NCBI RefSeq assembly: GCF_035046485.1
Contig: NC_085137.1
Coordinates: 312,491,164-312,555,163, forward strand
Reading direction: 5' to 3'
From: Aedes albopictus
Taxonomy: Eukaryota > Arthropoda > Insecta > Diptera > Culicidae
DNA: 64,000 bases
This document shows positions 92-60,587 of the stretch, piece after piece; within the stretch, counting starts at the first letter, position 1, and each line of letters starts with the position of its first letter. The notes under the pieces were generated by a model. That model ran no database searches and was not told the DNA's origin. It was given only the letters and a program-made list of their open reading frames with translations. The position numbers were made by a program, and so were the translations under genes.

Positions 92-102
92 TCAATACAT
101 AC

Positions 103-215
103 AAAAGTCAATGTATGTATGATTGTATGTTTATATGCTTGTAGGTATGTTATATGTTTGTATGTTTGTCTATTTGTATGTTGATATGTATGTACGTATG
201 TATATATGTATCAAT
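103..215 (+). repeat. TATG/TGTA microsatellite
   Basis: Imperfect TATG, TTTG and TATA tetranucleotides directly inside the Helitron 5' end. The right-hand Helitron has the complementary CATA-rich stretch in the same place (60.51-60.57 kb), so the microsatellite belongs to the element. Confidence 0.75.
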
Positions 216-239
216 GTACCGGCATAACTCTGGAATGCG

Positions 240-1173
240 TCAAGAAATTTCAATCAAATTTGGCATATACATTCCTTAGGATGTGAAGGTGGTAGTAGGG
301 GTATTGGAATTCAAGATGGCGGCTTAGGTTCCAAGATGGCGGTCAAAACTCCAGAATATATGCTTTTTAACGGCAATGCTGCTTCGGATACTATGCAATA
401 TGGGCATCTATCGATCGGGCTTCATAAGTAGAACTTAAAAATGAGTACCCGACGCCATTTTGAAATCCAATATGGCGAACCATATCCAAGATGGCGACCA
501 TGGAATGGTAGTTTGATATGTAATACCTTGCAATATGGGTATCTATCGATCGGGCTTGATGAGTAGAAGTCAAAAATCGATATTTAACGCCATTTTTAAA
601 TCCAAGATGGCGGACCATAATCCAATATGGCGGTCACGGAATGAGAGTTTTAGCTATGATACTATGCAATATGGGTATCTATCGATCGGGCTTCATTAGT
701 AGAACTCAAAAATGAATATCCGACGGCATTTTGAAATACAAGATGGCGGATCATATCCAAGATGGCAGCCACGGAATGGTAGATTCAGCTATGATACCAT
801 GCAATATGGGTATCTATCGATCGGGCTTCATGAGTAGAAGTCAAAAATCGATATTTAACATAATTTTAAATCCAAGATGGCGGACCATATTCAAGATGGC
901 GGCCACGGAAAGAGAGTTTGAGCAATGATGCCATGCAATATGAGTATTTATCGATCGGGCTTCATTGGTAGAACTCTAAAATAAATATCCGATGCCATTT
1001 TGAAATCCAAGATGTCTGACCATATCCAAGGTATCTATCGATCGGGCTTCATGAGTAGAAGTCAAAAATCGATATTTGACCCTGTTTTTATATCAAAGAT
1101 GGCAACCATGGAATGGTAGTTTGAGCTATGATACCATGCAATATGGGTATCTATCGATCAGACTTGATGAGTA
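240..1173 (+). repeat. 137-bp satellite, forward orientation (about 6 units)
   Basis: The landmark CTATCGATCGGGCTTSATGA recurs about every 135-137 bp (near 541, 677 and 812). Each unit holds AAGATGGCGG boxes and the ATGCAATATGGGTATC motif. These units differ from one another more than those at 53.4-60.4 kb. They are the reverse complement of that array. Short ORFs here are accidental, since 137 is not a multiple of 3. Confidence 0.85.
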
Positions 1174-7992: not shown

Positions 7993-9175
7993 CAAAAAAA
8001 ACTCACATCACTTTTTGGCAGTAAACCTCAACCGATTTTAATGACCGACGGTTCATTCGACGCGGAATCTGGTCTCATTGTTTCCTATTAAAAATGGTTC
8101 GAATCGGTTCAGCCGTTCCGGAGTTATGGCCATTTAGGTGTTCCGGGACGGTACCCCAGGAAGGGGCCAGATATGAAAATGTTACAAAACCATGCATGCG
8201 ACACATCAGACCGCGGCTTTTTCGATAACCTGGCGGACGGTAAGCAGGAAAATAGTATCAGGCTATATCTGAACCGGTAGTGTTCCGGAATCGGTTCCGG
8301 ATGTCCCGCCGGAAATGGCAAATTATAAAAGTGAGCCAAATCTATGCGACACATCAAATAGCAGCTTTTTCGATAACCTGATGAACAGTGAGTAGGAAAA
8401 TAGCCTTTGATCAAGCAGAGACTACCGGTTGTGTTCCAGAACCGGTTCCGGGTGCCTCGAGGGAAGTGGCCAAATATAAAATTGAACCAAACCCATGCAT
8501 GCGAAACATTAAATCGCGGCTCTTTGGATAACCTGATGAACGGTTAGCAATAAAATGAATTCAGACTATATTTAGGAAAACCAGTAGTATTCCGGAATCG
8601 GTTCCGTGTGTCCCGCTGGAAGTGGTTAAATGTAGATGGGAACCAAACCCATGCGTGCGACACATTAAATAGCAGCTTTTTCGATAACCTGAAGAATAAT
8701 AAGCATGAGAATAGCCCTAGATCACAGCACAGACTACCGGTAGTGTTCCGAAACCAGTTCCGGGTGCCACGCCGGAAATGGCCAAATATAAAAGTGAACC
8801 AAACCTTAGACCAAACCCATGCACGCGACACATCAAATAATGGATTTTTGGATAACTTAGTGAACGGTAAGCAGGAAAATAGCCTTAGATCACAGCGAGA
8901 CTACCGATAGTGCTTTGGAATCGGTTCCGGATGTCCCTCCGGAAGCGGTCAAATATAAAAGTGAACCAAACCCATGCATGCGACACATCAAATCGCGGCT
9001 CTTTAGATAACCTGATGAACGGATAGCAAGAAAATGGTTTCAGACCATATTTGGTACAACCAGCATTATTCCGGAACCGGTTCCGGTTGTCCCGCTGGAA
9101 GTGATCAGATGCATATGAGAGCCAACCCCATGTGTGCGACACATTAAATCGCGGCTATTTTGATAACCTGATGAA

Positions 9176-10118
9176 TGGGTCAGTCGGTTTTCTCGGTAGA
9201 GCCATGCAAGCGCGAGTGTGGAATGCGGAATCAGATTAGCTTGAGAATTTTCGAATGGCTGACAATTTTCAGGTAAGAGTGATGGAAGTGCGAGTGAAAA
9301 ATCCGGGATCAGAATCGCGCTACAATATTCGTTGGTCAGTCGGTTTTCTCGATAGGGCGATGGAAGTGCGAGTGAAAAATCCGGGATCAGAATCGCGCTA
9401 CAATATTCGTTGGTCAGTCGGTTTCCACGGTAGGGCGATGGAAGTGCGAGTGAAAAATCCGGGTTCAGAATCGCACTACAATATTCGTTGGTCAGTCGGT
9501 TTTCTCGGTAGAGCCATGCAAGCGCGAGTGTGGAATGCGGAATAAGATTAGCTTGAGAATTTTCGAATGGCAGACAATTTTCAGGTAAGAGTGATGGGGG
9601 TGCGAGTGAAAAATCCGGGATCAGAATCGCGCTACAATAATCGTAGATCAGTCGGTTTCCACGGTAGGGCGATGGAAACGCGAGCACGAAATCCGGGATC
9701 AGTGGTCATCGTGATCAAATAAATCATAATCGTGATGAAGACCGCGACGTGTATTTCCATATAACTAGTGGATCATATCACCTAACAGAGGTGGCTCCTA
9801 GATCCACACCTTACCCTATCCTACTAACCACCATTCCTTCCCGTGACAACTGTGGGGATGCTGTGGATTCCACGGTTTCTAGTAGCAACGGTTGTCGAAC
9901 TAACATTCCTTCCCTTTCCTGATGACCGTAAGGACGTGGCCAGCGCCGTTATTGACTTTAAATAGCTGAACTCTCGAATTGTGCACATTGAGAATGGTTA
10001 GCTAGTCCCAAGCTTTCACATTCATTGGCTCTCTGTGCAACTTCGATTGTTCTGGTCAATCACGGAGTAGCAACTACGATGTGTACGGTTATCTTTGCTT
10101 TGCTTTTGCTTTGCTTTG
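9176..10118 (+). mobile_element. Short retroelement: 78-bp minisatellite head, LINE-like tail, (GCTTT)n end
   Basis: The insertion is delimited by a 21-bp TSD starting CTATTTTGATAACC at 9155-9175 and 10119-10139; neighbouring units lack this variant. The head (about 9176-9700) is a tandem 78-bp repeat. The tail (about 9715-10085) shares CTAACATTCCTTCCC, AAGGACGTGGCCAGCGCCGT, TTGAGAATGG and CGATTGTTCTGGTCAATCAC with the minus-strand copy at 40389-41052. The 3' end is TTTGCTTTGCTTTTGCTTTG. The structure implies LINE-machinery retroposition of a 943-bp non-coding RNA. Confidence 0.75.
9178..9700 (+). repeat. 78-bp minisatellite (26-codon period)
   Basis: The unit starts GTCAGTCGGTTTTCTCG and includes GTGCGAGTGAAAAATCCGGG and CAATATTCGTTG. 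It recurs at about 9178, 9336, 9414, 9492 and 9650, with a longer variant containing GATTAGCTTGAGAATTTTCG. Because 78 is a multiple of 3, both strands stay open: 215 residues on minus (9040-9687) and 96 on plus (9255-9545), each a 26-residue repeat. I treat these as artefacts of periodicity. Confidence 0.85.
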
Positions 10119-14099: not shown

Positions 14100-15845
14100 A
14101 TGTCGGGTAAAGATTCCTTCAGAGATTCCTTTGCTTTTCTGAAGACTAGGAATGCCTTCACAGTTTTAAGAATATGTAAGAAAGTTTTCATTGGTAGAAT
14201 CTTTCAAATGTTACTTCAAAAGTTTCTTTATGCTTAAGGAGTTCTAGGAAAATTCTAGAAAATTAGAAGTTCCACCAGGAGTTGCTAATGAATTCTTCCA
14301 TACTTTCACTGGGAATATTCCCAGGAGTTCCTTGGAAATTCCTCCAGAAGTTCATCGGGGATTTCTCCAGAAATTCCTTGGAAATTCATCCAGGAGTTCC
14401 ATGGGGAATCCTCAAGGAGTTTCTCGGAAATTTCTCCAGGAATTCCTTGGGAATTTCTCCAGGAGTTCCTCGGCAATTTCTTCAGCAGTTCCTTGAAAAT
14501 TCCTCCAGCAGCTCATCGGAAAATCGTGCAGGAGTTTCTTGAGAATTTTTCCGGAAGTTTATCTAGAATTTTTGCAGGAATACCTAGTATTCCTTAGAGA
14601 GCTTCACGGGAATTCCTCAAGGAGCTTCTCCGACATTCCTACAAGATATCCTCGGGAGTAGCTTAGAAAGGTCCATGGGAATAGCTCCCTGAGCTCCTCG
14701 GTAATTTCTTCAGGGTTTCCATGGCATTTATTCCAGGAGTTTCCTGAGAAATGCTTCCAAGAGTTGCCAAGGAATTTCTGCAGAAATTTCTTGGGAATTT
14801 ATTAAGGACTTCTTCTATAGAATTTTTTTTTCAGAAGTTTCTGCAGGAGTTCTTAGGAAATTCCTGCAGGAGCTCCATTGGAATTCCGCAAGGAGTTTCT
14901 TCAGGAGGTCTTGGGGTTAGTTCCCGCAGATCCTTGCCTTTTTTTCGGAAGTCTCCTAGGCATTCCTCCAGAACTTCCTCGAAAATTTCTCCATGAGTTC
15001 CCAGGAAAGTTCTCCACGAGCTCCCCGCGAATTTCTACAGAAGTACCTTGGGAATTTCTTCAGAAGGTCTTCGAGAATTCTTCCAGCAGTTCTACCAGAG
15101 GTTCCTCGGAAATTGTTCCACGACCTTGCTCCATAACTTCGCGAATTCCTGCAGGAGTTGCTCGTCAATTTTCCTAGGAGATCCCGGTAGTTTTTAAAGG
15201 ACTTCACAGGAAATTCATTCAGAATGGATAATAAATAATTCTGCAGGAGTTTCCCGGGAATTCATCAAGCAGTTTCTCAGGAGTTCCTCAAAGAATTCCA
15301 TGCGAATTCTTCAAGGTGTTCCTCAGAAATTTCTCCATGAGTTCCTCGGGAATACCCCAAGAAGTTCCACGAGAATTCCTTCCGCAAGAGCTCCTCGGGT
15401 ATTTGTCCAGGAGTTTCACGGGAATACCTTTAGGAATTCTTCTGAAATTCCTCGAAAAAATCTCCAAGACTTCCTTGGAAGCTCTCTAGGAGTTCTTCTG
15501 GCAATGTTCCTAGGAGATCCCTAGCAACTTTTCCAGATGTTCCTAAAAAATTGTTTTATAATTTCCTCCGGAATTCCTCTTTAAGATTTCCCTAGGATGT
15601 TCTCTGGGAGTTTCTCAAAGAGTTCCTTGGGAATACCTCCAGGAATTCCTCGGTCGTTCCTTCAGGAGTTCTCCTGGATTTCTTCAAGGAATGCTTGGGA
15701 AGTTCTCTACGAGTTATTTGGGAGATACTGCAGAAGTTCTACATGAATTCATTCAGAAGCTCCACGGGAATATCTCCAGAAGTTCCAAAAATATTCTTCC
15801 AAAACTCTTGGATGAATTTCTAAGCAATCTCCGAGAAACTCCTGG
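14100..15845 (+). repeat. 24-bp minisatellite, 'CTCCAGGAGTTCC' orientation
   Basis: Words such as GGGAATTTCTCCAGGAGTTC recur about every 24 bp with drift. Because 24 is a multiple of 3, all frames produce 8-residue repeats (for example SRNSLGIS, QEFLGNF), giving several 60-120 residue ORFs that are not genes. Same general family as the arrays at 1.5 and 30.2 kb but more regular. Confidence 0.8.
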
Positions 15846-17060
15846 TGAAATTCCAGAGAAATTTCCAATGACCTACAGGAGGGATTCCTGAGGAACTCCT
15901 GGAGGAATTTCCGAGGAGTTCTTGGAAGAATTCCCGAGAAACTCCAGGATGAATTTCCGAGGAACTGTTAAAGGAATCACCGGTGACTTCCTGGAGGAAT
16001 CCTCGGAGAACTCCTGGGGAGATCCTTTGGAGACACCTGCCGGGGAGCTCCTGGAGATATTCTCAGAGTATTTTCGGAGTAATTTATGGGGAATTCATGA
16101 AGTGATTTCCGGGGAACTCTTGGAGAATTTCCCGGGGAACTACTACAGAAATTCTCAGGGAACTTTTGGAGAAATTCCTGAAGGAATCCTGGAGCAATTC
16201 GCGGGGAACTCCTGGAAGAATTTCCAGGGAACTTCAAGAGGAATTCCTGGGGAACTCCTGAAGGGATTCACTGGGAATTTTTAGGATGAACTTCCAGGAA
16301 ACTTTTTCGGAAATTCCTGGGGAACTCTCGGAGGTGTTCTCGGAGAATGCGTGAAGGAATTTCTGGGGATCTCATGAAGTAATTTCCGGAGAACTCCTAG
16401 AAAAATTCCGAGGAAACGACTACAGGAATTGCCAAGGAACTCTTCGAGGAATTCTTGGAGGATTTTGCCCTAGAGAAATGCCCGGGGAACTCCTAGTGGA
16501 ATTCCTGCAAAATCCCAGGGAACTCCTAGAGGTATTCCCGGACAATTCTTGGAGGAATTACTGGGGAACTCTTAGAGAAATTTCCGGGGAACTCAAGAAA
16601 GGAATTCTCAGGACATTCCTGGAGGAGTTCTCGAGAAACTCCTGGAGGAAGTCCCGGAGAACTCTGGAGGATTTTTTTTTGTGAGAAACTTGTGCAAATA
16701 TTTTTTGGGGAACTGCTGGATGAGTTTTCGGGCATTATTACCAAAGGATTTTTTGGGGAAATCTTGAACTTCTAAAAGAAATTCCGTGGAAATCCTAGAG
16801 AGAATTTTAAGACCATGTATGAAGGAATTACTGTAGAGAAATTCCTTGAAAAATCCTGGAGGGGTTTGACCAAAAATGCTGGAGGAATTCTTGGGAAATT
16901 TATAATCCCGTTATTTTCTTGGAACTTTTCCTGGAGGTTTTTTCCGGAGGCTCCTGTAGGAATTTCCTCGGAAATCCTAGAGGAACTTTCGTGGAACTTC
17001 GTGGGAAGAATCTCAAAGGGAACTGTTGTAAAAATCCTTAAAGAAACGTTTTGAGGAGTT
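15846..17060 (-). repeat. 24-bp minisatellite, inverted orientation
   Basis: From about 15846 the same repeat reads GGAACTCCTGGAGGAATTTC, the reverse complement of the preceding array. The two arms (1.75 and 1.2 kb) face each other and could pair imperfectly. ORFs of up to 120 residues here are repeat translations. Confidence 0.8.
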
Positions 17061-17471: not shown

Positions 17472-19567
17472 TGAAACGAACACACGAGTGTTGTTTCATA
17501 GACATCCCTACAATGTAAATAATGTCGTGCCTTTAAATAGGCAATCGGTATATTGAGTGCTCGAATCAGGGTTTCAATAGAAAATCGCGTAAGAGAAGAA
17601 GTTATTAAGAATTATTAAGTTGATCAATTGCAAGAAAATTTATGCTGTTGGAATGATTTCAAGAAAATTAAGAAAACGGAAATAAAAGAAAACCAAGAAA
17701 ATTGGAGGTCTGGAGTCTGGGATATGAACTATATTAGTTCTTTCCCAATCAGACTGCCGAAGAAGAAAGTTATTAAAATTGAGGGGCCCAGAATCAAAGG
17801 GGTGTAAGTGACAATTTTGTCGATTTTGAGCTGAGTATCTCATAAAATTCTTCAGATTTCAAGCTTTCAGGAACTTTTTTAAGATTGTTCCTACGATGAT
17901 TGGAAAAATCACAAAAAATCAGAGAAAATTGGGTTGATTTTGAAACTCCATACATTTTGTATGGGAAGAAAAATTGGTCAAAAACTTTAAACCTCGTTTA
18001 CTCGAAAGTGGGTTTTTGTCACTTACACCCCTTTGCTTCTAACCGCCTCAATTGTGAATTTTATGAAGTGATTGAAGCCTATTTAAAGTGAGCAAGTAAA
18101 GTTATATTACAAGAAAAAAAAAATCATTGCAATAATTTATTTAATTTAATTAAAGCTATTTGCAGAAATAAGTTGAGTTTTCGCACAAAAAAAACAAAAT
18201 CGTGAGTGGAGTGATATCAAAGATTTGATCCAGTAAGCACATGTGTTAGATAAATTAGTATCAAATGTAAAAGATTGTTACAAATATTTTCTGTAGGGAA
18301 GCGTGAGTGGATATTTAACAAGCTAATTTTGAAGAAAGAAAAGGAGCCAAAAAGTGAGAAGCAATAACGTGAGGTAAACTGTGCGAATGTATAGGTGTTT
18401 TTTGGTGCTAATACAATTTATTCCACAGTCACCGCAGTGACCGCGTGGAGCATTGGGGTTGAGGAGTGGCTTCGTTCGGTGGAACGCCGAGCCACAGAGC
18501 GTAATTGGCACAACAAGCTGCTCGCCAAAACCATCGGCATCGTGCGATCGGACTAGGGCGATCCCCTGGAGGTTCTCCTCGTCTCGTGGCTGCGTGCCGC
18601 TAGGAGTGCCCCCAGAGTGCGTGGTCAACGGTTTTAAGGATTCGGCCTCGCGAAACCACACCGCTACCCGTGGTTGCCTGCGAACGCGAGTAGTCTGACT
18701 GGGGAAAGAAACCCACAGCCAGCGAGATCCGCCCCCACACTCACGTCCCGGGTATAGAAGATCCATGGAATTTAGTCCGATCGCCTCCAACTCCCACCCC
18801 ACGTTCGTGTAAGTACCACGCCACGGTTGATGGTATTAATGCTCTCCAGACTGGGCCGTCTGAGCTATTAGCGTCGTGTTTTGCATCGAACATCGAGGCG
18901 ACGCCTGGTACCGAGCCCTCGGTGCACTCGGTCGGCGACCATCCGACTCCATCACCAACGACTGAGAACGCCTGGCTTAGCTCGACTAACAGCCGGCCGT
19001 CGGTCACCGCACGAAGATCGGCGTCGCTGCCGGCCGGTACACCATCGGTAGGCTGGTCGATCAGGTAACTCACCCGGCAGAGAATGTAAGTACCTGACAT
19101 TTTTATCGGAGCATGAGCACCCAAACACCAATACCTAGAGCGAGAATGAGTGATCAGTAGGGACATTTTGTATTTTGTAATGTATTGCTAGAGAATAAGC
19201 TTGAACTCACACACAAACTATTTGAAGAGCCACTCCAACAAGTGACGTCACTATTTAGGATTTTATAATTTGAACTTGAAAACTAAAACGGATCCGTTCA
19301 GAATCTAATAGGAACTTTTGTTTTAATCAATAAAACCACAACTTAGGAATGTAAATAGCTTTCAATATAAATAGTTTTTTTTTAAATAAATTGCCACAAA
19401 AGCAATTAAAATTGTTCTTTAAATCGGATTCAATAAACTTTGGCTATGAATGTTCAACAATTATTTGGACTAAACAAGAACTATTAGACTTTTTTAAACC
19501 ATTAGAATTTGGGATATTTACCTGCTTTAGGGAGAGAGTTCTTTGGGAAAGTGTTTGGCTCCTTACA
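17472..19567 (+). repeat. 5' LTR of a Ty3/Gypsy element (1.83 kb plus a 269-bp MITE)
   Basis: Starts TGAAACGAACACACGAGTG and ends CTCCTTACA directly before a primer-binding site. The same sequence returns at 23434. By eye the two LTRs differ at only about half a dozen substitutions and small A-run indels over 1.8 kb. The LTR has an AT-rich outer part and a GC-rich block (about 18425-19080). Two GTAAGTACC donor-like sites lie at 18809 and 19086. Antisense ORFs of 159 and 141 residues lie in the GC-rich block and look incidental. Confidence 0.85.
17781..18049. mobile_element. 269-bp MITE inside the 5' LTR (AATT duplication)
   Basis: Absent from the 3' LTR, where TTAAAATTGTGAATTTTAT is continuous. 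Ends GAGGGGCCCAGAATCAAAGG and, inverted, CCTTTGCTTCTAACCGCCTC. Near-terminal words GGGGTGTAAGTGACA and TGTCACTTACACCCC are exact complements. AATT is duplicated at 17777-17780 and 18050-18053. Confidence 0.85.
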
Positions 19568-23433: not shown

Positions 23434-24392
23434 TGAAACGAACACACGAGTGTTGTTTCATAGACATCCCTACAATGTAAATAATGTCGTGCCTTTAAAT
23501 AGGCAATCGGTATATTGAGTGCTCGAATCAGGGTTTCAATAGAAAATCGCGTAAGAGAAGAAGTTATTAAGAATTATTAAGTTGATCAATTGCAAGAAAA
23601 TTTATGCTGTTGGAATGATTTCAAGAAAATTAAGAAAACGGAAATAAAAGAAAACCAAGAAAATTGGAGGTCTGGAGTCTGGGATATGAACTATATTAGT
23701 TCTTTCCCAATCAGACTGCCGAAGAAGAAAGTTATTAAAATTGTGAATTTTATAAAGTGATTGAAGCCTATTTAAAGTGAGCAAGTAAAGTTATATTACA
23801 AGAAAAAAAATCATTGCAATAATTTATTTAATTTAATTAAAGCTATTTGCAGAAATAAGTTGAGTTTTCGCACAAAAAAAAACAAAATCGTGAGTGGAGT
23901 GATATCAAAGATTTGATCCAGTAAGCACATGTGTTAGATAAATTAGTATCAAATGTAAAAGATTGTTACAAATATTTTCTGTAGGGAAAAAGCGTGAGTG
24001 GATATTTAACAAGCTAATTTTGAAGAAAGAAAAGGAGCCAAAAAGTGAGAAGCAATAACGTGAGGTAAACTGTGCGAATGTATAGGTGTTTTTTGGTGCT
24101 AATACAATTTATTCCACAGTCACCGCAGTGACCGCGTGGAGCATTGGGGTTGAGGAGTGGCTTCGTTCGGTGGAACGCCGAGCCACAGAGCGTAATTGGC
24201 ACAACAAGCTGCTCGCCAAAACCATCGGCATCGTGCGATCGGACTAGGGCGATCCCCTGGAGGTTCTCCTCGTCTCGTGGCTGCGTGCCGCTAGGAGTGC
24301 CCCCAGAGTGCGTGGTCAACGGTTTTAAGGATTCGGCCTCGCGAAACCACACCGCTACCCGTGGTTGCCTGCGAACGCGAGTAGTCTGACTG

Positions 24393-24846
24393 CCCGACTA
24401 GAAAATTATATCAAGTTTATATCATATTGTGTTATGATGTTATAATATTGTTCTATAACTTATTTTGTTATAAACTAGATGCAGGATGATGTTAAAATAA
24501 CTAAAATTGTAACAAAAAGTATACTAGTCAAATCAAGATTATAACCTATTTTGTTATGAACAGATCAAAATTATAACAAAATGTGATATGAATTTTAGCC
24601 TCAGGAATACTAGTTTCTATCAAGATATGATACAACTTTGTTAGATCATTGTCCAAATGTCAAAGAATCAAAACTAAATTATATTACAATGAGTTATCAT
24701 ACAGCATTTCTAACATAATGTGATATAATTGAGTTATGGTATTTCAAAAACACCAAGGATGTTGAACATAATTATATCACAATTAGTTATAAATATCATG
24801 GTTTGTTTTAATTATGTTATATTCTTGTTAGGATTTTCTAGTTGGG
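24393..24846. mobile_element. 454-bp MITE inside the 3' LTR
   Basis: The 5' LTR reads GTCTGACTGGGGAAAG continuously; here the sequence is split after GTCTGACTG. Ends CCCGACTAGAAAATTATATC and GTTAGGATTTTCTAGTTGGG are imperfect inverses. The interior is a set of TTATAAC / GTTATAA words. The duplication is short (TG, 2 bp, or 3 bp) and its class is uncertain. Confidence 0.8.
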
Positions 24847-25457
24847 TGGGGCAAGAAACCCACAGCCAGCGAGATCCGCCCCCACACTCACGTCCCGGGT
24901 ATAGAAGATCCATGGAATTTAGTCCGATCGCCTCCAACTCCCACCCCACGTTCGTGTAAGTACCACGCCACGGTTGATGGTATTAATGCTCTCCAGACTG
25001 GGCCGTCTGAGCTATTAGCGTCGTGTTTTGCATCGAACATCGAGGCGACGCCTGGTACCGAGCCCTCGGTGCACTCGGTCGGCGACCTTCCGACTCCATC
25101 ACCAACGACTGAGAACGCCTGGCTTAGCTCGACTAACAGCCGGCCGTCGGTCACCGCACGAAGATCGGCGTCGCTGCCGGCCGCTACACCATCGGTAGGC
25201 TGGTCGATCAGGTAACTCACCCGGCAGAGAATGTAAGTACCTGACATTTTTATCGGAGCATGAGCACCCAAACACCAATACCTAGAGAGAGAATGAGTGA
25301 TCAGTAGGGACATTTTGTATTTTGTAATGTATTGCTAGAGAATAAGCTTGAACTCACACACAAACTATTTGAAGAGCCACTCCAACAAGTGACGTCACTA
25401 TTTAGGATTTTATAATTTGAACTTGAAAACTAAAACGGATCCGTTCAGAATCTAATA

Positions 25458-52511: not shown

Positions 52512-52559
52512 TTAAGCAATCTTTATAAGAAACTAGCTGAATGACCCGGCTTTGCTCGG

Positions 52560-53394
52560 GTTTGTTTATTAAGGAAGATTGAAGCAAATGCGAAGTCCAT
52601 CATAGCCGAAGACTATGCTGAAGATGAAGAGATTCCAGGTGACATAAAAGCCATATGAAAATACTGTCAAAAAGCTAGAGTTCCGAAGCATACTTAGTTT
52701 ACTAAACTATAAATCAAATGATACATTTGTACGGCATAGCTTGGCATTGTATTGACCGCACAACATACAAATTTATAGAATGAAAATCAAAAAAGCCATT
52801 CAATTAAAAACAGTAGCTGTGTTCAAAAGAAAAAGACTAAGCTGAAGAGAGAAGATCAAGTTCAATACCATAACTTGAATTTTATTTTCGTTTCTGCCAA
52901 CATGGCCACATAGTATTTGCTAAATTTATTAGTTTCATAGCTCATGATTCTTCATGTTTTGCTTTGACAACAAACAGTTCAAAATAAATTAAAGCTAAAT
53001 CATGTGCTCTCACCATTTTTCAACGGCACTTTGAAAAAGTGTTAAGTTTTTATACATCTCAGGTTCCATAGACAAATGTTACAAAGACATGGACGTTTCA
53101 AATAAGTTTTCGTTGCGTGCTCAGTGACCCATCAATTTCTTAATCTGTAGAAATATGTTTGCGTTACAACATGTAAACGCTTGCTGTCCGACTCGTTTAC
53201 GCTCGTCGGACTTTAAAAAGGGATAACACCTCTGTTCGCATTCTACCGGGCAAATGCTTGGATATGCTGTTCGCCTAGAAGTGAATCGACGCAAACACGG
53301 CGCATCGGACTTTCGGAACATCGGCGGCTTTCTGCCGCCGATGTTCCTCAGTCCTCCATACAGTTACAACGCAAAAATTTTCCAGAGGTTGTTA
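52560..53394 (-). other. Helitron 3' segment outside the satellite
   Basis: AT-rich, with a palindromic CATCGGCGGCTTTCTGCCGCCGATG at 53319-53343 in two pieces of CATCGGCGGC and complement. No coding domain recognised. Confidence 0.5.
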
Positions 53395-56300
53395 TATATT
53401 TTATGGTAAACGAATGATTTACGGTCCGCTATCTTGGTTTTCAAAATGACGTTCGATATCGATTTAAGATACCCATATTGCATGGTAAAATTGCTTAAAT
53501 CACCATTCCACGGCCTCCATCTTGGATTATGGTCCACCATCTTGGGTTTATAGTCCAGCACCTTGGATTCAAAAATAACGTCAAATATCGATTTGTGATT
53601 TCTACTCATCAAACCCGATCGATAGATATCCATATTGCATGGTATCATAGCTCATGACCGCCATCTTAGATTTACAGTCCGCCATCTTGGATTTCAAAAT
53701 GGCGTAAATATCGATTTTAACTTCTACTTATCAAGCCCGATCGATGAATACCCATATTGCATGATATTAAAGTGTAAATCATCATTCCATGGCCGCCATC
53801 TTGGATTTATTGTCCGCCATCTTGGATTTATAGTCCACCATCTTGGATTTAAAAATGCCGGCAAATATCGATTTTTGACTTCTACTCATCAAGCCCGATC
53901 CATAGATATCCATATTGCATGGTATCATAGCTCATGCCCGCCATCTTGGATTAGGGCCCGCCATCCTGGATTAGGGTCCGGCGTCTTGGATTAGGGTCCA
54001 CCATCTTTGATTTCAAAATGGCGTCATACATCGATTTTAACTTCTATTTATCAAGCCCGATCAATAGATGCTCATAATGCATAGTGTCATGGCTCAAATC
54101 ACCATTCCATGGTCGCCATCTTGGATTATGGCGCGCCATCTTGAATTATAGTCCAACATTTTGAATTCTAAAATAACGTCGGATATTGATTTTTGACTTC
54201 TACTCATCAAGCCCGATCGATAGATACCCATATTGCATGATATCATAGCTTAATCCACCATTCCATGACCGCCATGTTGGGTTTATAGTCTGCCATCTTG
54301 GATTCCAAAATGGCGTCGGGTATTGAGTTTTGACTTCTACTCATCAAGCAAAAATCGATAATACCCATTTTGCATGGTATCATAGCTTAACCCTCCATTT
54401 CATGGCCGCCATCTTAGATTATTATCAGCCATCTTGGATTCAAAATGCCGTCTAGTATCTAAGTTTGACTTCTATTCATCAAGCCCGGTCGATAGGTATT
54501 CATATTGCATGGAATCATAGCTCAAACCAGCATTGCATCTGGTTTACAGTCCGCCATATTGGATCCCAAAATGCAATCGGATATTGTTTTTTTACTTCTA
54601 CTCATCAAGCTCGATCGATAGATACCCATATTGCATGGTATCATAGCTCAAACCATCATTCTATGGCTGCCATATTGGATTTATAGTTTGCCATCTTGAA
54701 TTCCACAAAAGCGTTAGGTATGTATTGATTTTTGACTTCTACTCATCAAGCCCGATCGACGCCATTTTGGAATCCAAGATGGCGGACTATAAATCCAAGG
54801 TAACGGCCATGGAATAGTGAATTGAGTTATGATACCATGCAATATGGGTGCATGGTATCATAACTCAATTCACCATTCCATGGCCGTTATCTTGGATTTA
54901 TAGTCCGCCATCTTGGATTCCTAAATGGCGTCGGGTATTGATTTTTTACTTCTACTAATCAAGCCCGATTGATAGATACCCATATTACATGGTATCATAG
55001 CTCAATCCACCATTTCATGGCCGCCATCTTGGATTTATAGTCCGCCATCTTGGATTCTAAAATGGCGTCGTATATTGATTTTTGACTTCTACTCATCAAG
55101 CCCGATCGATAGATATCCATATTGCATGGTACCATAGCTCAATTCACCATTCCATGGCCGCCATCTTGGATTTATAGTCCACCATCTTGGATTCCTAAAT
55201 GGCGTCGGGTATTGATATTTTACTTCTACTCATCAAGCCCAATCGATAGATACCTGTATTGCATGGTATCATAGCTCAATCCACCATTCCATGGCCGCCA
55301 TCTTGGATTTATAGTCCGCCATCTTGGATTCCAAAATGGCGTTGTATATTGATTTTTTACTTCTACTCGTCAAGCCCGATCGATAGATACCCATATTGCA
55401 TGGTATCATAGCTCAAACCACCATTTCATGGCCGCCATCTTGGATTTATAGTCCGCCATCTTGGATTCTAAAATGGCGTCGTATATTGATTTTTGACTTC
55501 TACTCATCAAGCCCGATCGATAGATATCCATATTGCATGGTACCATAGCTCAATTCACCATTCCATGGCCGCCATCTTGGATTTATAGTCCACCATCTTG
55601 GATTCCTAAATGGCGTCGGGTATTGATATTTTACTTCTACTCATCAAGCCCAATCGATAGATACCTGTATTGCATGGTATCATAGCTCAATCCACCATTC
55701 CATGGCCGCCATCTTGGATTTATAGTCCGCCATCTTGGATTCCAAAATGGCGTTGTATATTGATTTTTTACTTCTACTCGTCAAGCCCGATCGATAGATA
55801 TCCATATTGCATGGTACCATAGCTCAATTCACCATTCCATGGCCGCCATCTTGGATTTATAGTCCACCATCTTGGATTCCTAAATGGCGTCGGGTATTGA
55901 TATTTTACTTCTACTCATCAAGCCCAACCGATAGATACCTGTATTGCATGGTATCATAGCTCAATCCACCATTCCATGGCCGCCATCTTGGATTTATAGT
56001 CCGCCATCTTGGATTCCAAAATGGCGTCGTATATTGATTTTTGACTTCTACTCATCAAGCTCGATCGATAGATACCCATTTTGCATGGTATCATAGCTCA
56101 ATTCACCATTCCATGGCCGCCATCTTGGATTTATAGTCCGCCATCTTGTATTCCAAAATGGCGTCGGGTCATGATTTTTGACTTTTACTCATCAAGCCCA
56201 ATCGATAGATACCCATCCTGCATGGTATCATAGCTCAAACCACCATTCCATAGCCGCCATCTTGGATTTGTAGTCCGCCATCTTGGATTCCAAAATGGCG

Positions 56301-59300
56301 TCGTATATTGATTTTGGCTTCTACTCGTCAAGCCCGATCGATAGATACCTATATTGCATGGTATCTAGCTCAATCCATCATTTCATGGCCGCCATCTTGG
56401 ATTCTAAAATGGCGTCGGATATTGATTTTTGACTTCTACTCATCAAGCCCGATCGATAGATATCCATATTGCATGGTACCATAGCTCAATTCACCATTCC
56501 ATGGCCGCCATCTTGGATTAGTAGTCCGCCATCTTGGATTCCAAAATGGCGTCGGGTATGGATTTTTGACTTCTACTCATCAAGCCCGATCGGTAGATAC
56601 CCATCTTGCATGGTATCATAGCTCAAGCCACCATTCCATAGCCGCCATCTCGGATTTGTAGTCCGCCATCTTGGATTCCAAAATGGCGTCGTATATTGAT
56701 TTTTGACTTCTACTCGTCAAGCCCGATCGATAGATACCCATATTGCATGGTATCATAGCCCAAACCACCATTCCATGGCCGCCATCTTTGATTCATAGTC
56801 CGCCATCTTGGATTCCAAAATGGCGTCGTATATTGATTTTTGACTTCTACTCATCAAGCCCGATCGATAGATACCCATCTTGCATGGTATCACAGCTCAA
56901 TTCACCATTCCATGGCCACCATCTTGGATTTATAGTCCGCCATCTTGTATTCCAAAATGGCGTCGAGTATTGATTTTTGACTTTTACTCATCAAGCCCAA
57001 TCGATAGATACCCATCCTGCATGGTATAGCTCAAACCACCATTCCATGGCCGCCATCTTGTAATTATAGTCCGCCATCTTGGATTCCAAAATGGCGTCGT
57101 ATATTGATTTTTGACTTCTACTCGTCAAGCCCGATCGATAGATACCCATATTGCATGGTATCATAGCTCAAACCACCATTCCATGGCCGCCATCTTGGAT
57201 TTATAGTCCGCCATCTTCGATTCCAAAATGGCGTCGGGTATGGATTTTTGACTTCTACTCATCAAGCCCGATCGATAGATATCCATCTTGCATGGTATCA
57301 TAGCTCAAACCACCATTCCACAGCCGCCATCTTGGATTTGTAGTCCGCCATCTTGGATTCCAAAATGGCGTCGTATATTGATTTTTGACTTCTACTCATC
57401 AAGCCCGATCGATAGATACCCATATTGCATGGTATCTAGCTCAATCCACCATTTCATGGCCGCCATCTTGGATTTATAGTCCGCCATCTTGGATTCTAAA
57501 ATGGCATCGGATATTGATTTTTGACTTCTACTCATCAAGCCCGATCGATAGATACCCATCTTGCATGGTATCACAGCTCAATTCACCATTCCATGGCCAC
57601 CATCTTGGATTTATAGTCCGCCATCTTGTATTCCAAAATGGCGTCGAGTATTGATTTTTGACTTTTACTCATCAAGCCCGATCGATAGATACCCATCCTG
57701 CATGGTATCATAGCTCAAACCACCATTCCATGGCCGCCATCTTGGATTTATAGTCCGCCATCTTGGATTCCAAAATGGCGTCGAATATTGATTTTTGACT
57801 TCTACTCATCAAGCCCGATCGATAGATACCCATCTTGCATGGTATCATAGCTCAAACCACCATTCCATAGCCGCCATCTTGGATTTGTAGTCCGCCATCT
57901 TGGTTTCCAAAATGGCGTCGTATATTGATTTTTGACTTCTGCTCGTCAAGCCCGATCGATAGATACCCATATTGCATGGTATCATAGCTCAAACCACCAT
58001 TCCATGGCCGCCATCTTGGATTTATAGTCCGCCATCTTGGATTCCAAAATGACGTCGTATATTGATTTTTGACTTCTACTCGTCAAGCCCGATCGATAGA
58101 TACCCATATTGCATGGTATCATAACTCAAACCACCATTCCATGGCTGCTATCTTGGATTTATAGTCCGCCATCTTGGATTCTTAAATGGCGTCGGATATT
58201 GATTTTTGACTTCTACTCATCAAGCCCGATCGATAGATATCCATATTGCATGGTATCATAGCTCAATTCACCATTCCATGGCCACCATCTTGGATTTATA
58301 GTCCGCCATCTTGTATTCCAAAATGGCGTCGAGTATTGATTTTTGACTTTTACTCATCAAGCCCGATCGATAGATACCCATCCTGCATGGTATCATAGCT
58401 CAAACCACCATTCCATGGCCGCCATCTTGGATTTATAGTCCGCCATCTTGGATTCCAAAATGGCGTCGAATATTGATTTTTGACTTCTACTCATCAAGCC
58501 CGATCGATAGATACCCATCTTGCATGGTATCATAGCTCAAACCACCATTCCATAGCCGCCATCTTGGATTTGTAGTCCGCCATCTTGGTTTCCAAAATGG
58601 CGTCGTATATTGATTTTTGACTTCTGCTCGTCAAGCCCGATCGATAGATACCCATATTGCATGGTATCATAGCTCAAACCACCATTCCATGGCCGCCATC
58701 TTGGATTTATAGTCCGCCATCTTGGATTCCAAAATGACGTCGTATATTGATTTTTGACTTCTACTCGCCAAGCCCGATCGATAGATACCCATATTGCATG
58801 GTATCATAACTCAAACCACCATTCCATGGCTGCTATCTTGGATTTATAGTCCGCCATCTTGGATTCTTAAATGGCGTCGGATATTGATTTTTGACTTCTA
58901 CTCATCAAGCCCGATCGATAGATATCCATATTGCATGGTATCATAGCTCAATTCACCATTCCATGGCCGCCATCTTGGATTTATAGTCCGCCATCTTGGA
59001 TTCCAAAATGACGTCGTATATTGATTTTTGACTTCTACTCGTCAAGCCCGATCGATAGATACCCATATTGCATGGTATCATAACTCAAACCACCATTCCA
59101 TGGCTGCTATCTTGGATTTATAGTCCGCCATCTTGGATTCTTAAATGGCGTCGGATATTGATTTTTGACTTCTACTCATCAAGCCCGATCGATAGATACC
59201 CATATTGCATGGTATCATAGCTCAATTCACCATTCCATGGCCGCCATCTTGGATTTATAGTCCGCCATCTTGGATTCCAAAATGGCGTCGGGTATTGATT

Positions 59301-60445
59301 TTTGACTTCTACTCATCAAGCCCGATCGATAGATACCCATCTTGCATGGTATCATAGCTCAAACTACCATTCCATGGCGGCCATCTTGGATTTATAGTCC
59401 GCCATCTTGGATTCCAAAATGGCGTCGGATATTGATTTTTGACTTCTACTCATCAAGCCCGATCGATAAATACCCATATTGCATGGTACCATAGCTCAGT
59501 CCACCATTCCATGGCCGCCATCTTGGATTTATAGTCCGCCATCTTGGATTCCAAAATGGCGTCGTATATTGATTTTTTACTTTTTCTCATCAAGCCCGAT
59601 CGATAGATACCCATCTTGCATGGTATCATAGCTCAATCCAACATTCCATGGCCGCCATCTTGGATTTATAGTCCGCCATCTTGGGTTCCAAAATGGCGAC
59701 GGATATTGATTTTTGACTTCTACTCATCCAGCCCGATTGATAGATACCCATATTGCATATTATCATAGCTCAATTCACCTTTCCATGGCCGCCATCTTGG
59801 ATTTATAGTCCGCCATTATGGATTCCAAAAAGGCGTCGGGTATTGATTTTTGACTTCTACTCATCAAGCCCGATCGATAGATACCCATCTTGCATGGTAT
59901 CATAGCTCAAACTACCATTCCATGGCGGCCATCTTGGATTTATTGTCCGCCATTTTGGATTCCAAAATGGCGTCGTATATTGATTTTTGACTTCTACTCG
60001 TCAAGCTCGATCGATAGATTGCATGGTATCATAGCTCAATTCACCATTCTATGGCCGCCATCTTGAATTCATAGTTCGCCATCTTGGATTCCAAAATGGC
60101 GTCGGATATTGATTTTTGATTTCTACTCATCAAGCCCGATCGATTGATGCCCATATTGCATGGTATTAAAGCTCAATTCACCATTCCATGGCCGTCATCT
60201 TGCATTATGGTCCGCCATCTTGGATTATAGTCCGCCATCTTAGATTATGGTCCACCATCTTGGATTCCAAAATGGCGTCGAATATCAATTTTTGACTTCT
60301 TCTCATCAACCCCAATCGATAGATACCCACAATGCATAGTATCCGTAAAAGATTTACCGTTAAATAGCATTCATTCTGACGTTTTGGCCGCCATCTTGGA
60401 ACCCGAGCCGCCATCTTGAATTCCAATACCCTTATAACCACCCCC
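53395..60445 (-). repeat. 137-bp satellite, about 51 units
   Basis: One unit: CGATCGATAGATACCCATAT, GCATGGTATCATAGCTCAA, CACCATTCCATGG, then CCGCCATCTTGGATTTATAGT, a second CCGCCATCTTGGATT, AAAATGGCGTCG, ATTGATTTTTGACTTCTACT and CATCAAGCC. Counted length 137 bp. Higher-order copies: a 685-bp (5-unit) block repeats at about 57560 and 58245; a unit with ATATCCATATTGCATGGTAC recurs at +411 and +274 bp near 55.1-55.8 kb. Units at the edges (53.4-54.9, 60.0-60.4 kb) are most diverged, as in arrays homogenised from the middle. Around 54770-54850 a short inverted piece breaks the order. No CRISPR features. Confidence 0.92.
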
Positions 60446-60587
60446 TTAATCTAACAAATGTGTATACCAAATTTGGTTGAAATTGGATGAGGCATTCCAG
60501 AGTTATGCTGGAACATACATACATACATACAAACAAATAAACATACAAACATACAAACATACATACATTGACTTTTATATATATAGA

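What the first reader, a model, noticed from the sequence alone, without database searches (positions are those of the whole stretch)
52533..60587. A Helitron that carries a 7-kb satellite array
The outer 5' and 3' signatures (TC start, hairpin, CTAG, A|T site) enclose about 51 copies of a 137-bp unit. About 87 percent of the element is one satellite. Short tandem repeats inside Helitrons are known, but an array this long inside clean termini suggests either satellite birth inside a Helitron by rolling-circle or unequal exchange, or a Helitron as vehicle for spreading satellite DNA. A second copy at 92-1173 has the same 5' architecture with older units, so the association is heritable and not a chance insertion.
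Basis: partly seen in the sequence, partly recalled or inferred. Interest (0 to 1): 0.85.

Follow-up and report, generated by a model that had tools for sequence, protein, structure and literature searches.

The report
Helitron family carrying whole satellite arrays
A family of jumping genes in this genome consists largely of a long tandem DNA repeat, and near-identical copies at unrelated sites show that a whole 5.5-kb repeat array can be copied to a new place in one piece.

Summary
Confirmed and extended. Window 60587 to 52533 (minus strand) is an 8,055-bp non-autonomous Helitron: A|TC start, 3' hairpin, CTAG|T end, about 87% of it an array of about 51 units of 137 bp. It belongs to a family. 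Twenty loci picked by 3'-domain similarity all carry unit arrays and a same-strand 5' domain; arrays between located ends hold roughly 15 to 50 units, and one short copy with about 6 was read later. Three 6,686-bp relatives with a 5.5-kb array differ by 0 or 1 base in unrelated flanks; a fourth matches at both ends and in length. Two empty-site tests indicate clean A|T insertion. So the array travels as part of the Helitron. Over longer times its interior is reshuffled, with edges better kept in one clade. A candidate autonomous partner shares the 3' end. The principle (satellite-like repeats inside Helitrons/Helentrons, feeding satellites) is published for Drosophila and oyster, with up to 89 monomers in element-associated arrays. 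What stands out is the long arrays in canonical Helitrons and the direct evidence that a whole array moved. Whether the satellite also exists without Helitron ends is untested: that genome search did not complete.

The parts
60558..60587 (-). Helitron 5' terminus (TC..., host A before it on the element strand)
   Evidence: identical first 18 bases in 16 of 19 copies with both ends located; A|TC in 17 of 19
60513..60568 (-). TGTATGTT-type microsatellite behind the 5' terminus
60353..60513 (-). conserved 5' domain, 91-99% between copies except L039 (80-85%); grades into degenerate units
53416..60400 (-). tandem array, about 51 units of 137 bp with two CCAAGATGGCGG modules per unit; interior units 92.7-98.5% to the consensus, those on the element's 3' side 81-92%, the outermost 5' piece about 80%
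52533..53388 (-). 3' domain without unit array; 95-99% within the window's clade, 85-90% to the other clades
52544..52561 (-). 3' hairpin ACCCGAGCAAAGCCGGGT, 11 bases before the end of the element
52533..52536 (-). CTAG 3' terminus, followed by host T
   Evidence: CTAG|T in 22 of 22 rows
92..1173 (+). older, 3'-truncated relative: 5' terminus, 5' domain and about 6 units

Best explanation
This is one copy of a non-autonomous Helitron family whose body is a 137-bp satellite array. SHOWN: canonical ends, clean insertion between A and T at the two sites tested, 106 places with the 3' end in the genome (two of them on candidate autonomous elements), and a 6,686-bp copy with a 5.5-kb array present intact at several unrelated sites. 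INFERRED: copying is by rolling-circle transposition with Rep/Hel supplied in trans, perhaps by a related autonomous Helitron that shares the 3' end. INFERRED from comparison of arrays: between jumps the interior turns over by unequal exchange, slippage or gene conversion (unit-sized length changes, scrambled order), while units near the edges keep their place better. The array is inherited cargo, older than the subfamilies, and each jump of a long copy seeds a multi-kilobase array at a new locus.
For: L035 and L036 are identical over 6,686 bp and L034 differs by 1 base. A fourth copy has no mismatch in its first 486 and last 101 bp and the same implied length; its middle was not read. Flanks of these copies and of the L037/L038 pair share no cross-copy match at E<1e-4 (5' flanks 115-2,500 bases, 3' flanks 70-136 bases) and only 9-17 of 40 (5') or 12-20 of 40 (3') bases next to the ends. 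Clean insertion: the joined flanks of L034 match 40 of 40 scored places (1,489 first-look candidates) from base 1 or 2 to base 130-144, across the junction after base 110, at 94-98%; joined flanks of the fourth copy read open across the junction and align there without gap to an integrase of known structure (E 2.4e-5; Pfam rve E 2.3e-6 but 28.2 bits, under the 32.6 cut-off). CTAG|T in 22 of 22 and A|TC in 17 of 19. Pairing 29 of 40 against 2 and 1. Turnover: L037 and L038 differ by 1 base and one 157-bp unit; in six copies of one clade edge units are conserved by position (0.97, 0.96, 0.92 at the 3' edge; random interior pairs 0.76). Units track subfamily: Mantel rho 0.50 with the 3' domain, 0 of 5000 permutations reach it; nearest unit outside the own copy lies in the own group for 88% and 94%. 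Candidate partner: two of the 3' ends lie 4.8-4.9 kb past the start of Helitron_like_N matches on the same strand; one has a 3' domain 71% identical to ours over 575 bp.
Against: The 5' end of the candidate partner was not found in the 8 kb read, and its helicase part was not read. Between the window copy and L026, about 98% alike in unique parts, unit order is barely above shuffles (chain 0.44, shuffled maximum 0.43), and 6 of the 14 pairs tested do not exceed their shuffled maximum, so intact inheritance is clear only in very recent copies. In the window's clade the 3' edge is not conserved by position (0.62-0.85 over eight positions, random 0.82). Not all copies are long: L051 holds only about 6 units, and further paired ends lie only 1.9-2.9 kb apart (not read). 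The four near-identical copies lie within about 48 kb on one contig. The matched piece past the L034 junction is only 20-34 AT-rich bases. Array lengths rest on one assembly.
Confidence: 0.92

Rival explanations
1. Chance enclosure: the ends belong to separate elements, or a Helitron end landed beside an existing satellite array.
For: The window's older copy has only a 5' end. L024, L025 and L032 have interrupted or incompletely read arrays with distant 5' domains.
Against: 20 of 20 fetched loci carry the array and a same-strand 5' domain; pairing 29 of 40 against 2 and 1; near-identical complete copies at unrelated sites.
Confidence: 0.02
2. The near-identical copies are segmental duplications or assembly artefacts rather than transposition.
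For: Four copies sit within about 48 kb on contig C3 in alternating orientation, and L037/L038 are 34 kb apart.
Against: Flanks share no more than chance right up to the terminal bases, and two sites give continuous empty-site matches. Duplication or misassembly would not be expected to stop at the Helitron termini.
Confidence: 0.04
3. The array is built anew at each insertion by aberrant rolling-circle replication and is not carried as a block.
For: Published models propose partial rolling-circle rounds that multiply Helitron segments (PMC12628747, passages). Unit numbers differ widely between copies, from about 6 to about 50.
Against: The same 5.5-kb array with the same unit order in different sites; edge units conserved by position in one clade; units track subfamily.
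Confidence: 0.06
4. The element captured a pre-existing free satellite rather than giving birth to it.
For: Helitrons are reported to capture host sequence including tandem repeats (PMC12628747 and PMC8268682, passages). A free form was not excluded, since the unit search did not complete.
Against: The 5' domain and both array edges grade into degenerate units. Copies of all three clades have the array.
Confidence: 0.25

Closest known systems
Helentron non-autonomous elements and Helitron-associated satellites of the oyster Crassostrea gigas (Cg_HINE; CgiSat01)
   Same: Conserved ends, microsatellite, then a central array of mostly 140-180-bp monomers, dispersed over the genome (passages of PMC7492417 and PMC8268682). 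CgiSat01 reaches 89 monomers in element-associated form.
   Different: Those arrays mostly hold up to 5 monomers (longest 29.3 in PMC7492417), and 'element-associated' in PMC8268682 includes arrays with a box on one side only. Here the ends are canonical Helitron (A|TC...CTAG|T), the 19 copies with both ends placed hold roughly 15-50 units, and near-identical copies show an array moving whole.
DINE-TR1 of Drosophila (Dias et al. 2015, seen only through PMC9957191 passages)
   Same: About 150-bp central tandem repeats inside a non-autonomous Helentron; expansion into satellite arrays, e.g. dmgsat-7 up to about 82.6 kb.
   Different: There the long arrays are described as satellites derived from the element. 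Here long arrays are still inside complete mobile copies.
Helitron tandem arrays of plants (Xiong et al. 2016, seen only through PMC12628747 passages)
   Same: Helitron replication linked to tandem arrays.
   Different: There truncated Helitrons are repeated, many arrays having several 5' ends and one 3' end. Here an internal 137-bp unit is repeated between one 5' and one 3' end.

Membership tests
Helitron (canonical, non-autonomous) | 5' TC | tested here: met
   A|TC in 17 of 19 copies with both ends located; L029 and L042, and the later-read L051, are degenerate at the start
Helitron (canonical, non-autonomous) | 3' CTRR with a hairpin shortly upstream | tested here: met
   CTAG in 22 of 22 rows; hairpin plus CTAG in 106 places with up to 2 mismatches, reversed control 0; hairpin energy itself not unusual. 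Definition from PMC6544945 passages
Helitron (canonical, non-autonomous) | insertion between A and T without target duplication or loss | tested here: met
   (termini); empty sites for 2 copies
Helitron (canonical, non-autonomous) | no terminal inverted repeats | not tested
   ends were read by eye only
Helitron (canonical, non-autonomous) | autonomous relative with Rep and helicase sharing the ends | tested here: inconclusive
   Rep domain (PF14214, E 1.6e-58) with the same 3' end and a 71% 3' domain; helicase part not read, 5' end not found
Helentron / HINE (DINE-1 type) | other target (T|T) and 3' end without CTRR (recalled) | tested here: not met
   CTAG|T in 22 of 22 rows
tapiR satellite of culicine mosquitoes | contains tapiR1 or tapiR2 sequence | tested here: not met
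   best match in the whole window has 11 of 30 and 8 of 29 mismatches (sequences from PMC9781653 passages)
classical satellite DNA | long free arrays outside mobile elements | tested here: inconclusive
   only loci anchored on Helitron ends were seen; the unit search did not complete

The most novel reading that the evidence does not exclude
The array is a working part of the element rather than a passenger. A Helitron lineage may have kept arrays through the split of three clades because the array helps the element, for example by binding host proteins through its dense AAGATGGCGG modules (71 in the element, 0 in 54.7 kb of the rest of the window). It would then also be the main source of this satellite in the genome, so that long arrays spread by transposition instead of being an obstacle to it.
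Probability: 0.12. Interest if true: 0.78.

Novelty: new member of a known kind. Interest (0 to 1): 0.5.

Why it matters
Satellites are known to lie inside Helitrons, but in the passages seen here movement of arrays is inferred mainly from dispersal. Here one genome holds near-identical complete copies with 5.5-kb arrays in unrelated sites, with empty-site evidence for two. That makes two things measurable: how array length and order change per jump and over time, and whether long arrays limit mobility. PMC7492417 (passages) reports a model in which repeat number and mobility are inversely related; the long copies here, three of them read in full, are a counterexample worth testing.

Tried and rejected
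tapiR satellite lead: the CCATCTTGGAT-rich unit suggested the mosquito piRNA satellite; rejected, because tapiR1 and tapiR2 do not match. Scans of viral contigs for the unit core and the 3' end: 0 hits each. Rfam: nothing at gathering scores in the window or L046. End-swapping between subfamilies through the array: against the window's clade, 5' domains are 91-98% alike (L039 83-84%) where 3' domains are 85-90%, and L045 looked chimeric at first; the pairwise tables, unit neighbours and tree did not require swapping, so it is not claimed. Selection on the AAGATGGCGG module: motif positions are hardly more conserved than the rest (0.906 against 0.885, and 0.898 against 0.882). Gain or loss of the 157-bp unit in L038/L037: not polarised; the extra unit is 2 mismatches from units 290 and 1,051 bp away and not an exact copy.

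Rows dropped and sampling: the 20 fetched loci are not a random sample but 20 of the 23 best 3'-domain rows other than the window's; three rows (C3:227886162, later read at its ends only; C584; C2:258019367) were not fetched. Three 3'-domain rows (second pieces or weak) were dropped before the pairing, to which 16 of the 40 rows were added; one search used the 100 listed of 106 ends. L035, L036 and L038 were left out and the Mantel test as near-duplicates; L025 and L032 were left out of that test (no 5' domain in the fetched stretch, few units). L038 shows 0 units because its array was merged with that of a neighbouring element; it has 41 rows, 44.8 unit lengths. Unit numbers are array bases divided by 137 (19.7-52.2 in 18 copies) and are too high where foreign sequence lies inside, as in L028; the stricter gives 15.1-50.1 in 19 copies.
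Full report
What is there. The window lies in a 1.34-Gb assembly with three giant contigs of 338, 519 and 450 Mb. At 60587-52533 on the minus strand there is an 8,055-bp element: A|TCTATATATATAAAAGTC..., a TGTATGTT-type microsatellite, a conserved 5' domain, an array of about 51 units of 137 bp, an 0.86-kb 3' domain, a hairpin, and ...TTCAGCTAG|T. The array makes up 84-87%. Interior units are 92.7-98.5% to the consensus, those on the element's 3' side 81-92%, and the outermost 5' piece about 80%. The unit contains two CCAAGATGGCGG modules, usually 20-21 bp apart across the unit boundary, and module spacing varies between copies.

It is a family. The 168-bp 3' end scored 40 places in the genome, three of them 100% identical on three contigs, the window's included. 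The last 29 bases, with up to 2 mismatches, occur 106 times; the reversed control occurs 0 times. I fetched 20 of the 23 best 3'-domain rows other than the window's own. All 20 carry unit arrays (only 7.5 units at 73% seen in L032 and 9.4 in L025). All 20 have a same-strand 5' domain: 17 within the fetched 10 kb, and those of L024, L025 and L032 12 to 16 kb away. With the window and L045, 22 rows were compared: both ends could be placed in 19, CTAG|T holds in 22 of 22, A|TC in 17 of 19, and flanks of up to 150 bp of different copies do not match at E<1e-6. Array content in the 19 is 15.1 to 50.1 unit lengths by BLAST coverage, 55-84% of the element, except 34% and 38% in two copies with long insertions (C3 copy, L040). 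Copies with short arrays exist: L051, 1.9 kb, has both domains, a decayed 5' terminus and about 6 units, and other paired ends lie 1.9-2.9 kb apart (not read). Starting from the 40 scored 5' domains (1,102 first-look candidates), 29 have a same-strand 3' end within 15 kb among the 100 listed, against 2 with the end upstream and 1 on the wrong strand.

The array moves whole. L034, L035 and L036 are 6,686-bp copies with a 5.5-kb array (40 unit lengths, 34.5 by the stricter count); L035 and L036 are identical and L034 has one difference. A fourth copy, within about 48 kb of the others, has the same implied length and no mismatch in its first 486 and last 101 bases; its middle was not read. The flanks of the four do not match each other; within one copy, L036, the 3' flank resembles a stretch 220-315 bp upstream of its 5' end (91.6% over 95 bp), a local repeat of the host DNA. 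Two empty-site tests agree. The L034 flanks, joined, match 40 of 40 scored genome places in one piece across the junction at 94-98% identity, ending 20-34 bases past it. The fourth copy's flanks, joined, stay in frame and align across the junction without a gap to an integrase (E 2.4e-5, Pfam rve E 2.3e-6 but under the family's cut-off). This is Helitron insertion without duplication or loss, and the array came along.

How the array changes. L037 and L038, in different flanks 34 kb apart, differ by one base in 7,139 and by one 157-bp unit; gain or loss is not decided. Over longer times order is lost: the window copy and L026, about 98% alike outside the array, have unit orders barely above shuffled ones (0.44 against a shuffled maximum of 0.43); 6 of the 14 pairs tested do not exceed their shuffled maximum, while the window with L024 or L025 does. 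In six compared copies of one clade, edge units keep their position (0.97, 0.96, 0.92 at the 3' edge; 0.86-0.95 for the first six at the 5' edge; random interior pairs 0.76). In the window's clade this holds in part at the 5' edge (0.81-0.93, random 0.82) and not at the 3' edge (0.62-0.85). Kept edges with a restless interior are what unequal exchange predicts. Units track lineage: the nearest unit outside the own copy falls in the own group for 88% (window's clade) and 94% (ten other copies), and unit similarity follows 3'-domain similarity in 17 copies (Mantel 0.50, 0 of 5000; for 5' domains 0.37, 48 of 5000; 5' with 3' domains 0.27, 175 of 5000). A tree of 19 3' domains plus the candidate partner shows three groups, each with 100/99 support or better, and arrays in copies of all three, so the array is probably older than the groups.

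What drives it. No open frame longer than 122 codons lies wholly in the element. Of 93 Helitron Rep matches in the genome, two of the strongest begin 4.8-4.9 kb upstream of 3' ends that fit the pattern exactly; the other four of the six strongest have no listed 3' end within 12 kb. For one of the two, the 3' domain is 71% identical to ours over 575 bp, and its open frame holds Helitron_like_N and, unexpectedly, 13 STPR stretches. Its 5' end was not found in the 8 kb read and the helicase was not read, so it is a candidate partner only.

Known or new. Central tandem repeats in Helitrons and Helentrons, and satellites arising from them, are published: oyster (PMC7492417, PMC8268682), Drosophila DINE-TR1 (PMC9957191), and a 2025 review (PMC12628747); I saw passages of each. 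The oyster work lists up to 89 monomers in element-associated arrays, counting arrays with one end only. So 51 units is not a record and the kind is known. In the listings of four library searches no title or abstract start described a mosquito Helitron with such arrays, and the passages seen of PMC7728395 did not either; subscription papers and Repbase were not searched. The additions here are a canonical Helitron family with mostly long arrays in the copies read, and direct evidence that a whole array moved.

Limits.

Noticed in passing
G000:C3:227880365-227928444 (L034, L035, L036, L049, L050): Four near-identical copies (one read only at its ends) within about 48 kb in alternating orientation, flanks unrelated: a local burst or local insertion preference.
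   Followed up: partly
L046 (C1:220291926 on): The open frame of the candidate autonomous Helitron has 13 STPR repeat stretches, the best at residues 330-402, besides the Rep domain at 1029-1209.
   Followed up: no
L048, positions 120-1530: A 1.4-kb AATTAA hexanucleotide array upstream of the candidate autonomous Helitron.
   Followed up: no
L026 3' flank; L030 3' flank: The element abuts a Helitron-like 5' end: by eye a different family in L026, a copy of the same family in L030.
   Followed up: no
L037 and L038 arrays: Higher-order repeat of about 761 bp made of several units.
   Followed up: partly
window 53416-60400: 71 copies of AAGATGGCGG in the element against 0 in 54.7 kb of the rest of the window, the older copy left out; resembles the YY1/Pho binding motif (recalled).
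   Followed up: partly
window 8185-9175 and 9178-9702: Two further tandem arrays side by side, units about 156 and 78 bp.
   Followed up: no
window 14310-16671: 23-bp minisatellite blocks in both orientations.
   Followed up: no
window 18323-19187 and 24014-25334: Near-identical open frames about 6 kb apart on both sides of a retroelement integrase frame.
   Followed up: no
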